Assembly: GCF_001029505.1 (NCBI RefSeq)
Contig: NZ_LEKH01000006.1
Span: forward strand, 124,001-188,000
From: Rubrobacter aplysinae
Lineage (GTDB): Bacteria > Actinomycetota > Rubrobacteria > Rubrobacterales > Rubrobacteraceae
Reading direction: 5' to 3'
Length of the DNA stretch: 64,000 bases
The position numbers were made by a program, and so were the translations under genes. Shown here in pieces: positions 485 to 4,116 of the stretch. Positions within the stretch are counted from its first letter, which is position 1, and each line of letters starts with the position of its first letter. The notes under the pieces were generated by a model that was given only the letters and a program-made list of their open reading frames with translations, was not told the DNA's origin and did not search any database.

Positions 485-1117
485 CTATCCACTTTCGGCG
501 AAAGCCAGCCGCAACCCGAGGCCGACAATCACCCCACCCGTAACGTATCCCAGAGCCTTCGCCGGTCCGGGTCTGCCTCTAAACCAGCCGCCCAGAGCTC
601 CGGAGAAAAGCGCGATCACCCCGGTAAACACCAGTGTGAGCAACGTAAAAGCCGCCCCGAGCGAGAGGAAGCCCAACGCCCCGCCGGAGCCCGCGAACTG
701 CGGCAGGAAAGCCAGAAAGAAAAGCGCGACCTTCGGGTTCAGCACGTTCGTGAGGAGGCCCTGCGCGAAGATGCTCCTGAGCCCCGCCGCCAGACGCCCG
801 CTCTCTGGTACGGAGAAACTCTCTCTATCAAAGAGCGTCTTTACACCAAGGTACACTAGATAAGCCGCCCCCGCATACTTTACGACCTGGAAAGCGGCGG
901 CGCTGCTCGCCAGTATCGCTGAGAGCCCGGCGGCGGCGAGCGTGGTGTGTACGAGCAGCCCGGCGCACACTCCCCACGAGGAGACGAGCGCCGCCCTCCG
1001 GCCCTGGGCCACACCGCGCGTCAGCACGTACAGGTTGTCCTGGCCCGGGGTCGCGATCAAGGCCAGCGACGCGCCCAGTAAAAACAGTAGACTCGAACCT
1101 TCCGGCAGCACACTCAA
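485..1117 (-). CDS. LysE/RhtB-family amino acid exporter
   Basis: Integral membrane protein of 210 residues, predicted to export amino acids or similar small metabolites. The family signature at the first helix is present: ATPGQDNLYVL followed by QGRRA and a small-residue helix. About six hydrophobic segments span the protein, the normal length and layout for LysE/RhtB. The TTG start is chosen because AAGGTGAG lies just upstream; a GTG two codons further is the alternative. It begins 12 bases after the glmS stop on the same strand, so it is probably co-transcribed with glmS. The substrate cannot be told from sequence. Confidence 0.88.
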   Translation of the reverse strand: MSVLPEGSSLLFLLGASLALIATPGQDNLYVLTRGVAQGRRAALVSSWGVCAGLLVHTTLAAAGLSAILASSAAAFQVVKYAGAAYLVYLGVKTLFDRESFSVPESGRLAAGLRSIFAQGLLTNVLNPKVALFFLAFLPQFAGSGGALGFLSLGAAFTLLTLVFTGVIALFSGALGGWFRGRPGPAKALGYVTGGVIVGLGLRLAFAESG

Positions 1118-1128
1118 ATTCTCACCTT

Positions 1129-3015
1129 CTACTCCACGGTTACGCTTTTCGCGAGGTTGCGGGGCTTGTCCACGTCCAGCCCGCGGAACTTCGCCACGTG
1201 GTAGGCGAGGAGCTGTAGCGGCACGCAGACCACTAGCGGGCTCAGCTCGGGGGTTTCGAGCGCCGAGGCAGGTAGCGGCAGGGTGGACTCCGCGACCCGC
1301 TCGGCTTCCGGGTCTCCCTCTGCGGCCACGGTTATGACGCGGGCGCCGCGGGCCATCGTCTCCTCGACATTGGAGAGCGTCTTCTCCCGGTACACGCCGT
1401 GGCCCAGGATGGCGACGACCGGGCAGTAGTCGTCCACGAGCGCTATCGGACCGTGCTTCATCTCGCCCGCCGGGTATCCCTCGGAGGGGAGGTAGGAGAT
1501 CTCCTTCAGCTTCAGCGCCCCCTCCAGCGCGATGGGAAACGAGACGCCGCGCCCGAGAAAGAGCGAGCATCGGGCCTCCTCGAAGATGCCGACGGCCCGC
1601 CGCATCCGGCTCACGCCGTCCTCGCCCTCTAGCAGGGCCAGCGCCTCCTCCACCCTGTCGGGCGAGCGGCGTAGCTCCTGTCCGAGCTCTCGGCGCCCGT
1701 CCTCGGGTAGAGTCCCCCGCGCCTCCGCGAGCCCGAGCGCGAGCAGGTACATGGCCGCGATCTGGGTGGTAAAAGCCTTCGTGGAGGCGACGGCTATCTC
1801 CGGGCCCGCGTGGGTGAGCAGAACTGCGTCGGCCTCGCGGGTAATTAGCGAGTCCCGGGTGTTGGTTAGGGCGAGCACCTTGCCGCCGAAGCCCCGGGCG
1901 GACTCGACCGCCGCCAGCGTGTCGGTGGTCTCGCCGCTCTGGGAGATGGCGACCACCAGCGTCCGCCCGTCGCCGATGGGGTCCGAGTAACGGTACTCGC
2001 TCGCGATCTCCACGTCCACCGGGATCCGGCACAGCCGCTCTATGACGGTCTTCCCGAGAAGCCCCGCATGATAGGCCGTGCCGCAGGCCGCGACCACGAC
2101 ACGGTCTATATCCGTAAGGTCGAGGTCTAGCTCGGAGAGGTCGAGGTTCCCTTCGGTGTCCAGACGGCCGGAGAGGGTTCGGGCCAGGGCGCCGGGCTGC
2201 TCGTGGATCTCCTTGTGCATGTAGTCCTCGTAGCCGCCGAGCTCCACGGCCTCCGGGCTCCAGTCAACCTCGAAGTAGTCGCGCTCGACGGGCCGGCCGT
2301 CCGGGGTCGTGATCCCGACCTTCGAGCCGGTGATGGTCGCGATCTCACCGTTCTCGACCACCAGAAAACGCCGGGTGCGACCGACGAGGGCCTGCACCGC
2401 GCTGGCCAGGAAGTTCTCTCCCTCTCCGAGCCCGACGATCAAAGGGCTCTGGTGCCGGGCGGCGACTATCGTATCCGGCTCGTCGGCGCTGACCGCGGCG
2501 ATTGCGAAAGATCCCGTAAGCCTGCCGAGTGTGGCGGCCACGGCCTCCCGCAGCCCCTCTCCGGCCTCCACCCGCTCCGAGAGCAGGTGGGCTATGACCT
2601 CGGTGTCGGTCTCCGAGACGAAGCCGTGACCCCTGCTTTCGAGCTCGCGCCGCAGCCCGGCGTGATTCTCGACGATACCGTTGTGCACCACGGCGACCCG
2701 TCCGGCCTCCGCCCGGGCGTTACCCGCGGCGCCGACGTGCGGGTGGGCGTTCGCCTCCGTAGGCCGCCCGTGTGTCGCCCAGCGGGTGTGGCCTATACCG
2801 CTCCGCACGCCGCCGAGAGATCCGTTCGTCTCGGCCAGCGCCTCGGTAAGATTCCTCAGGGGGCCCACACGCCGGACACGCCATATCTCGTCCGTGTCGG
2901 GTGCGGCGAGGGCGAGCCCCGCCGAGTCATAGCCCCGGTACTCCAGATGCCCGAGTCCCTCCATCAGGACCTCGACACACCCGTTTTCGCCCACGTAACC
3001 GACTATTCCGCACAT
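1129..3015 (-). CDS. glmS: glutamine--fructose-6-phosphate aminotransferase (isomerizing)
   Basis: Makes glucosamine-6-phosphate from fructose-6-phosphate and glutamine, the first step to UDP-GlcNAc for the cell wall. The protein has 628 residues. The N-terminal glutaminase begins MCGIVGYVG with the catalytic Cys2 and carries THGRPTEANAHPH. Two SIS sugar-isomerase domains follow, with ACGTAYHA and ISQSGETTDT in the first. The C-terminus ends KPRNLAKSVTVE, the conserved sugar-site tail. The ATG is fixed by the need for an exposed Cys2 and by GGAGAAGG upstream. A glmS ribozyme in the 5' leader (3150-3305) indicates feedback control by the product. The lysE-like gene follows at once. Confidence 0.97.
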   Translation of the reverse strand: MCGIVGYVGENGCVEVLMEGLGHLEYRGYDSAGLALAAPDTDEIWRVRRVGPLRNLTEALAETNGSLGGVRSGIGHTRWATHGRPTEANAHPHVGAAGNARAEAGRVAVVHNGIVENHAGLRRELESRGHGFVSETDTEVIAHLLSERVEAGEGLREAVAATLGRLTGSFAIAAVSADEPDTIVAARHQSPLIVGLGEGENFLASAVQALVGRTRRFLVVENGEIATITGSKVGITTPDGRPVERDYFEVDWSPEAVELGGYEDYMHKEIHEQPGALARTLSGRLDTEGNLDLSELDLDLTDIDRVVVAACGTAYHAGLLGKTVIERLCRIPVDVEIASEYRYSDPIGDGRTLVVAISQSGETTDTLAAVESARGFGGKVLALTNTRDSLITREADAVLLTHAGPEIAVASTKAFTTQIAAMYLLALGLAEARGTLPEDGRRELGQELRRSPDRVEEALALLEGEDGVSRMRRAVGIFEEARCSLFLGRGVSFPIALEGALKLKEISYLPSEGYPAGEMKHGPIALVDDYCPVVAILGHGVYREKTLSNVEETMARGARVITVAAEGDPEAERVAESTLPLPASALETPELSPLVVCVPLQLLAYHVAKFRGLDVDKPRNLAKSVTVE

Positions 3016-3149
3016 CCCAGCCTTCTCCTTCCGTAACTCCCTTAGCTTCCGTAGCTCCAACGTAATAGCGAGCAGGCACGGCCAGGTCCACAGATCCGTA
3101 GGTACGTAGATACATGTGGGATCACCTGGGGCCACAGGAACAGCCTGGA

Positions 3150-3305
3150 GTGCTCCGGGTCCGGGCGGGGCTTTGTTCCCGGCGTCACCGCCGGGGTTTT
3201 ACCACCGCCCTCTCGACCACCCGAAGGCCGAGACGCATCCGCCGAATAACTCGATAACGTCTACCTCGTCGACTCCCCGCCTCTCACGCCGGGAGCCCTG
3301 GCGCT
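3150..3305 (-). ncRNA. glmS ribozyme (GlcN6P-activated self-cleaving riboswitch)
   Basis: Read on the minus strand, the leader starts TATAGCGCCAGGG, the conserved cleavage-site block; the cut is expected between A3305 and G3304. It continues with a CTCCC/GGGAG stem (P1), GACGAGG, then a stem AGACG/CGTCT enclosing TTATCGAG and TTCGGCGGATG, which are the catalytic-core strings of the class. After P3 come a CCCGGCG-GTGA-CGCCGGG hairpin (P4 with its GTGA loop) and AACAAAG. All conserved segments appear in the right order directly upstream of glmS. The 3' boundary is approximate. Cleavage in response to glucosamine-6-phosphate would destabilise the mRNA (family knowledge). Confidence 0.95.
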
Positions 3306-3624
3306 ATATCTGCTCTTGCCGTTCTTGCAGCTCTCGCTGACCGTCCTCCGCTCCGACCCGAGCTGCGGTAAAACCGCGCTCCCGCCAGAGCCTCTCGCTA
3401 ACTTTTCTAACTCACGCGGCTTACCGGCTTGTATCCGGTGAGCCTCCGTACTCCTGTACTCTAGCTTACCTCCTCACTCTCGGCCTCTCCGGCACACGGG
3501 CAGCATACCCCGCCGCACGGAGCTTTAAAAGACCCCTGTTGCCTCTGAACGGCGCTGGAGACATGCCGCAGGCAGCGGGGAGGGCCGGAAGCATCCGCCC
3601 GGGGCATCCGCTAGGATTGTGGTT
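3306..3624. other. intergenic region upstream of the glmS ribozyme
   Basis: No gene seen. The glmS promoter must lie here on the minus strand, but I see no convincing -35/-10 pair. A perfect inverted repeat GCGGT-AAA-ACCGC lies at 3365-3377. TAGGAT at 3612-3617 sits seven bases before the ATG of the acetyltransferase at 3625 and is a possible -10 for a leaderless mRNA. Confidence 0.5.
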
Positions 3625-4116
3625 ATGTCTAACGCTGACGGAGACTATGCCGTACGCCCCGGACGCCGGGAAGACGCGCCGGAGGCGGCCCGGCTCTGGA
3701 TGCAGAGTGCGGAAGAGCACACGGAGTACGATGAGGTCTACCGGACCTCCCCGCAGGCCGAGAGGACCATGCGGCGCTTTCTCGCGGACCTGGCGAGCGG
3801 AGGTCACGCCTTCCTGCTCGTCGCGGTCGAGCCGGATGAGGGAGGCGTGATCGGCTTCCTCTCCGGGGAGCTCCGCGAGGGGTCACCGACTTTCTCCCCG
3901 AAGACCTGGGCCTCGGTAGACGACATCTACGTGGCACCCGAGCATCGCAGCCGGGGCGTGGGCCGGGAGCTCGTGCGCCGCTGCCGCGAGTGGGCCGCCG
4001 ACCGCGGCGCCGACGGCGTCTCCCTACAGGTCGCAGCCGGAAACGAGCGGGCCCGCAAGCTGTACCGGGAGCTCGGCTTCCGAGAGGTCTCGGTCTACGC
4101 CGTCTCAGAGTTGTAG
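3625..4116 (+). CDS. GNAT-family N-acetyltransferase
   Basis: Predicted acetyl-CoA-dependent N-acetyltransferase, 163 residues, substrate unknown. The acetyl-CoA loop is clear: VDDIYVAPEHRSRGVGRELV matches motif A with the R/Q-x-x-G-x-G/A pyrophosphate-binding turn. NERARKLYRELGF near the C-terminus is the usual motif B. Single-domain, normal length. ATG at 3625 is preferred; a GTG two codons upstream is possible. There is no Shine-Dalgarno site, but TAGGAT lies exactly seven bases upstream, so the mRNA may be leaderless. Monocistronic: the downstream gene faces it. Confidence 0.88.
   Translation: MSNADGDYAVRPGRREDAPEAARLWMQSAEEHTEYDEVYRTSPQAERTMRRFLADLASGGHAFLLVAVEPDEGGVIGFLSGELREGSPTFSPKTWASVDDIYVAPEHRSRGVGRELVRRCREWAADRGADGVSLQVAAGNERARKLYRELGFREVSVYAVSEL

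What the first reader, a model, noticed from the sequence alone, without database searches (positions are those of the whole stretch)
3150..3305. glmS ribozyme in an actinobacterial genome
All conserved blocks (cleavage-site AGCGCC, P1, P2.1 with TTATCGAG and TTCGGCGGATG, P4 GTGA hairpin, AACAAAG) are present in order upstream of glmS. The class is best known from Firmicutes; its presence in a Rubrobacter-like actinobacterium suggests transfer or deep inheritance, and it brings product feedback to the adjacent LysE-type exporter too.
Basis: partly seen in the sequence, partly recalled or inferred. Interest (0 to 1): 0.75.

Follow-up and report, generated by a model that had tools for sequence, protein, structure and literature searches.

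The report
glmS ribozyme in an actinobacterium
The gene for an essential cell-wall sugar enzyme carries, in its messenger RNA leader, a textbook self-cutting RNA switch (the glmS ribozyme) best known from Firmicutes; here it is shared by the whole bacterial family and by several other lineages of the phylum, so it is a genuine but ordinary member of a known class.

Summary
Rfam RF00234 (glmS ribozyme) matches window 3316-3153, minus strand, full length, 100.5 bits (gathering score 37), E 2.5e-22, the only hit in the genome. All catalytic and tertiary determinants checked are present, including the general-base G, both core pseudoknots, the P3/P3.1 pseudoknot, the IL4 purine stack and a GNRA loop. 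P1, P2, P3.1, P4 and P4.1 covary in 36 relatives. Cleavage is predicted at A3305|G3304, upstream of a single-copy glmS. The genome has RNase J and no detectable RNase E/G, so the Bacillus subtilis mechanism (self-cleavage, 5'-OH RNA, RNase J decay) fits.

It is no local oddity: 37 of 39 same-family genomes carry it (the other two, about 82% complete, show no glmS either), as do nine other families of the phylum. GlmS of this family groups with actinobacterial GlmS, arguing against transfer of the gene from Firmicutes; leader-only transfer versus deep inheritance stays open. The LysE-type exporter is probably co-transcribed (11-nt gap) but adjoins glmS in only 5 of 30 informative family loci. 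Verdict: new member of a known kind, modest interest. Side finding: one family has the ribozyme, with two extra core hairpins, ahead of glnA-glmS.

The parts
3153..3316 (-). glmS ribozyme (RF00234), whole model match
   Evidence: cmscan 100.5 bits, E 2.5e-22, model positions 1-167; family model R1 154.8 bits (R1 was built with this sequence)
3304..3305 (-). Predicted self-cleavage site, between A-1 (3305) and G1 (3304)
   Evidence: Model alignment; A-1, G1 and the bulged A6 (3299) invariant in 36 family sequences. Cleavage itself not tested
3240..3303 (-). Pseudoknot P2.2: 3303-3300 (CGCC) with 3243-3240 (GGCG)
   Evidence: Four standard pairs, invariant in 36 sequences, so no covariation information
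3271..3297 (-). P1: 3297-3291 with 3277-3271
   Evidence: 99.2% of cells paired, two pairs with changes on both sides
3252..3268 (-). Pseudoknot P2.1: 3268-3266 (CGA) with 3254-3252 (UCG); general-base G at 3264 (equivalent to Bsu G42 / Tte G40 as in PMC11602151)
   Evidence: Invariant in 36 sequences; helix definitions from PMC7125110 and PMC11602151
3231..3262 (-). P2: 3262-3258 with 3235-3231; active-site G at 3239 (Bsu G67 equivalent)
   Evidence: 100% of cells paired, two pairs with changes on both sides
3214..3230 (-). P3: 3230-3226 with 3218-3214
   Evidence: 97.2% of cells paired
3156..3223 (-). P3.1 pseudoknot: 3223-3219 (CGGGU) with 3160-3156 (ACCCG)
   Evidence: All five pairs standard in the window; four of five pairs show changes on both sides in the family, though only 80.1% of cells pair
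3163..3210 (-). P4: 3210-3205 with 3168-3163; IL4 purine stack AAA 3199-3197 and AAA 3174-3172
   Evidence: 92.1% of cells paired, three pairs with changes on both sides; IL4 adenines near invariant
3178..3195 (-). P4.1 hairpin with GNRA loop GUGA (3188-3185)
   Evidence: 98.4% of cells paired, three pairs with changes on both sides
3016..3152 (-). 137-nt spacer between ribozyme and glmS start, with a GGAGAAGG ribosome-binding-like stretch before the ATG
   Evidence: Direct reading; glmS start 49-233 nt after the ribozyme in the other glmS-proximal loci
1129..3015 (-). glmS, glutamine--fructose-6-phosphate transaminase, 628 aa, single copy
   Evidence: TIGR01135 745.9 bits, SIS and GATase domains, one match in own genome
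485..1117 (-). LysE-type translocator, 210 aa, 11 nt after glmS stop; probable second cistron
   Evidence: PF01810 109.2 bits; gap and direct adjacency in 5 of 30 informative family loci

Best explanation
A functional glmS ribozyme in the leader of the glmS mRNA. When glucosamine-6-phosphate (GlcN6P), the product of GlmS, accumulates, it binds the preformed core and acts as cofactor for cleavage between A3305 and G3304. The downstream mRNA is left with a 5'-OH and is degraded, probably by RNase J, lowering GlmS. In this genome the same mRNA probably continues into the LysE-type gene. The element was already present in the common ancestor of this bacterial family. Shown here: sequence, structure, covariation, context and the presence of RNase J. 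Inferred from the known family: GlcN6P dependence, cleavage, decay and co-transcription.
For: RF00234 hit 100.5 bits, E 2.5e-22, only one in the genome. Every catalytic or tertiary determinant checked is present. In 36 family sequences 95.9% of cells form standard pairs, against 35-51% when partners are slid; 14 pairs have changes on both sides, against 6.6 in shuffles and 3-6 when slid. The glmS gene follows in all 71 non-f24 loci, the window included. RNase J found at 607.8 bits, RNase E/G not found. RNase J1-dependent decay after glmS self-cleavage in B. subtilis is described in PMC3997798. Carrier in 37 of 39 family genomes; the two without it also give no glmS match.
Against: No cleavage, ligand or transcript data. 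No sigma-70-like promoter was found upstream, though that scan does not cover other promoter types. The single-strand fold of the core is only weakly better than shuffles (z -1.3), as expected for a GC-rich, pseudoknotted RNA.
Confidence: 0.95

Rival explanations
1. A degenerate or ligand-altered relative: the fold is kept but the RNA responds weakly, or to another amino-sugar phosphate.
For: Ligand specificity cannot be read from sequence with certainty, and rare variants of the class exist (from memory).
Against: All active-site positions checked are the common ones and invariant across 36 family members; glmS is the downstream gene.
Confidence: 0.04
2. On its origin: the ribozyme leader, without the glmS gene, was transferred into the ancestor of this family from Firmicutes or another carrier and replaced the native leader.
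For: Carriers are scattered on the GlmS tree: about 10 changes of state over all carriers. The best-known Actinomycetes lineages lack it.
Against: All family members with glmS carry it; in a weakly supported ribozyme tree the family falls nearer other actinobacterial ribozymes than most Bacillota ones; leader-only replacement needs recombination in a short stretch.
Confidence: 0.4
3. On its origin: the element came in together with a Firmicutes glmS gene.
For: Happens plausibly elsewhere in the phylum: GlmS of families f28 and f30 groups with Bacillota, support 98-99.
Against: GlmS of the window's family lies within the actinobacterial GlmS clade, support 98 in two trees. The alternative is disfavoured but not formally rejected (AU p 0.075).
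Confidence: 0.08

Closest known systems
glmS ribozyme / GlcN6P riboswitch (Rfam RF00234), Bacillus subtilis and Thermoanaerobacter tengcongensis type
   Same: Full-length model match, same active-site residues, double pseudoknot core, P3/P3.1 pseudoknot, IL4 purine stack, GNRA L4, position upstream of glmS
   Different: GC-rich sequence, variable P1, one inserted A before the IL4 AAA run, actinobacterial host, and a LysE-type gene behind glmS
glmS ribozymes of other Actinomycetota lineages
   Same: Same Rfam family, glmS immediately downstream in all but f24
   Different: About 51-60% mean identity to this family's ribozymes over aligned columns (f24 not in that alignment); f24 has two extra core hairpins and glnA between ribozyme and glmS

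Membership tests
glmS ribozyme (RF00234) | Covariance-model score above the gathering threshold over the full model | tested here: met
   100.5 bits against 37, positions 1-167
glmS ribozyme (RF00234) | Cleavage-site strand A-1 G1 CGCC and general-base G in GACGAGG | tested here: met
   A3305, G3304, 3303-3300, G3264; invariant in 36 sequences
glmS ribozyme (RF00234) | Double-pseudoknot core (P2, P2.1, P2.2) with covarying helices | tested here: met
   All pairs standard; P2 covaries, P2.1 and P2.2 invariant so uninformative
glmS ribozyme (RF00234) | Peripheral domain: P3/P3.1 pseudoknot, P4 with IL4 purine stack, GNRA loop | tested here: met
   P3.1 five pairs with covariation in the family; AAA/AAA; GUGA
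glmS ribozyme (RF00234) | Located in the 5' leader of glmS | tested here: met
   glmS start 137 nt downstream, same strand, TIGR01135 745.9 bits
glmS ribozyme (RF00234) | GlcN6P-dependent self-cleavage | not testable with these tools
   Needs in vitro transcription and cleavage
glmS ribozyme (RF00234) | Decay of the cleaved mRNA by RNase J (as in B. subtilis) | tested here: inconclusive
   RNase J gene present, RNase E/G not found; decay itself not measured

The most novel reading that the evidence does not exclude
The glmS ribozyme was already the regulator of glmS in the ancestor of Actinomycetota (perhaps shared with Bacillota) and was lost repeatedly, for example in the Actinomycetes and Thermoleophilia sampled here, so that it is an ancient control rather than a Firmicutes invention that spread.
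Probability: 0.4. Interest if true: 0.5.

Novelty: new member of a known kind. Interest (0 to 1): 0.3.

Why it matters
It shows that GlcN6P-sensing ribozyme control of cell-wall precursor synthesis is a standard feature of one whole actinobacterial family and of several other lineages of the phylum, not a Firmicutes peculiarity. That gives a set of GC-rich, divergent ribozymes for structure-function work and a way to test whether this RNA switch is ancient. The locus itself is ordinary.

Tried and rejected
Chance match: rejected (E 2.5e-22, one hit per genome, strong covariation). Contamination by a Firmicutes contig: rejected, since the same arrangement recurs in 37 of 39 family genomes and GlmS is actinobacterial-type. 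LysE co-regulation as a conserved feature: rejected, since many family loci have instead a convergent gene resembling a diacylglycerol-kinase-type lipid kinase (named by eye from its sequence) next to glmS. Sampling other phyla for the ribozyme by locus id failed, because only G handles are accepted as a centre. Coordinate slips were corrected. The papers that survey the class (McCown et al. 2011 and 2012) are not held, so whether Rubrobacter was already listed there could not be checked; papers naming both glmS ribozyme and Rubrobacter: none held.

Full report
Observation. The Rfam scan of the whole window gives two matches above threshold, one of them RF00234 (glmS ribozyme) at 3316-3153 on the minus strand, full length, 100.5 bits, E 2.5e-22. 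It is the only copy in the 3.19-Mb genome.

Anatomy. Using helix definitions from published structure-function papers (PMC7125110, PMC11602151), I mapped P1, P2, P2.1, P2.2, P3, P3.1, P4 and P4.1 onto the window and onto 36 family sequences. The window has every catalytic position checked: A-1, G1, the bulged A6, the P2.1 and P2.2 strands, the general-base G at 3264, the active-site G at 3239, the IL4 adenines and a GUGA tetraloop. Covariation: 95.9% of cells are standard pairs, 14 pairs change on both sides, and no shuffle of 500 reaches any of the five measures; sliding the partners drops pairing to 35-51%. The structure was drawn on the window sequence, which by itself favours it over slid versions on cells paired, but not on the counts of two-sided changes to this extent. 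The L3-to-3'-tail pseudoknot P3.1 is complete in the window and covaries in the family (80.1% of cells paired), which supports an intact peripheral domain.

Context. glmS follows 137 nt downstream (start 3015, 628 aa, TIGR01135 745.9 bits). A GNAT acetyltransferase is divergent upstream (3619-4116, +). A LysE-type gene (485-1117) follows glmS with an 11-nt gap. Of 30 family loci whose glmS is complete on the contig, LysE is the direct same-strand neighbour in 5 (window, G354, G394, G280, G379; gaps -5 to 204 nt), lies 655-949 nt away in 3 more, and is not found in the rest. Several of those 30 have short downstream flanks, down to 559 nt in the window's only held congener, where no LysE is seen. 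Many of the others have a convergent gene resembling a lipid kinase next to glmS. So the exporter may be under the same control here, but this is a lineage-specific arrangement with no conservation to argue for a physiological link.

Mechanism. In B. subtilis, GlcN6P-induced cleavage leaves a 5'-OH end that RNase J1 can attack (PMC3997798). The window genome has an RNase J (607.8 bits, cutoff 400) and no detectable RNase E/G, so the same route is available. Cleavage, ligand and decay are inferred.

Distribution. In a sample of 396 genomes of the phylum, 75 carry RF00234: 37 of 39 same-family genomes, plus nine other families. The two family genomes without it are 82-83% complete and also lack a glmS match. 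Among 80 named GlmS loci from all bacteria, the family model finds strong matches in 14: 13 Bacillota and one Atribacterota; no named Actinomycetota (Actinomycetes and Solirubrobacterales) gave one (the weak hits at 14-19 bits, three of them in Actinomycetota loci, were not examined further and are treated as chance). Forty ribozyme-less loci of the phylum gave no hidden copy.

Origin. In two GlmS trees the window's family falls inside the actinobacterial GlmS clade (support 98), not with Bacillota. Holding it with Bacillota costs 24 log-likelihood units, AU p 0.075, so this is disfavoured, not excluded. Families f28 and f30, by contrast, have GlmS grouping with Bacillota (98-99), which looks like a glmS gene transfer. 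Carrier state needs at least about 10 changes on the wider tree; the count cannot separate gains from losses. A short-sequence ribozyme tree is too weak to decide. Deep inheritance with many losses and leader-only transfer both remain possible.

Comparison with what is known. By every testable criterion this is a glmS ribozyme of the common architecture. What is different is only sequence composition, host and the second cistron. From memory, not checked here, the 2011 survey of the class already reported a distribution beyond Firmicutes, and the Rfam model would annotate this locus automatically. I therefore score it as a new member of a known kind, with low to moderate interest.

Side finding. 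In all four held genomes of one small-genome order (f24) the ribozyme has two extra hairpins in the core between the P2 5' strand and the P2.1 3' strand (two members folded: z -4.3 and -3.4). In the three whose contigs reach far enough it lies between a glmM-like gene (named by eye) and glnA (TIGR00653, tested in two), followed by glmS. If active, GlcN6P would there control the glutamine synthetase that makes GlmS's co-substrate. This may be more interesting than the window's own copy.

Noticed in passing
L104:2630-6200, L099:2537-6111, L105:2574-6343, L100:2653-2890: glmS ribozyme with two extra core hairpins placed between a glmM-like gene and glnA, then glmS (family f24, all four held genomes of its order carry the ribozyme; operon seen in the three with enough contig). 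Would put glutamine synthetase under GlcN6P control.
   Followed up: partly
L079, L080, L081, L088, L095 (families f30, f28): Ribozyme-bearing glmS whose GlmS protein groups with Bacillota (support 98-99) in genomes assigned to the window's phylum: candidate transfer of glmS with its ribozyme.
   Followed up: partly
window 485-1117 (-): LysE-type translocator 11 nt after glmS; direct neighbour of glmS in only 5 of 30 informative family loci, scattered over several genera.
   Followed up: yes
window 3016-3152 (-): Ribozyme-to-glmS spacer of 137 nt, longer than in most family members (typically 60-100 nt), with a short imperfect direct repeat GGAG(C/T)TACGGAAG before the start codon.
   Followed up: no
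L190 and L201 (genome G003): A genome of the phylum (family f4) with two glmS-type genes and no ribozyme found in either locus.
   Followed up: no
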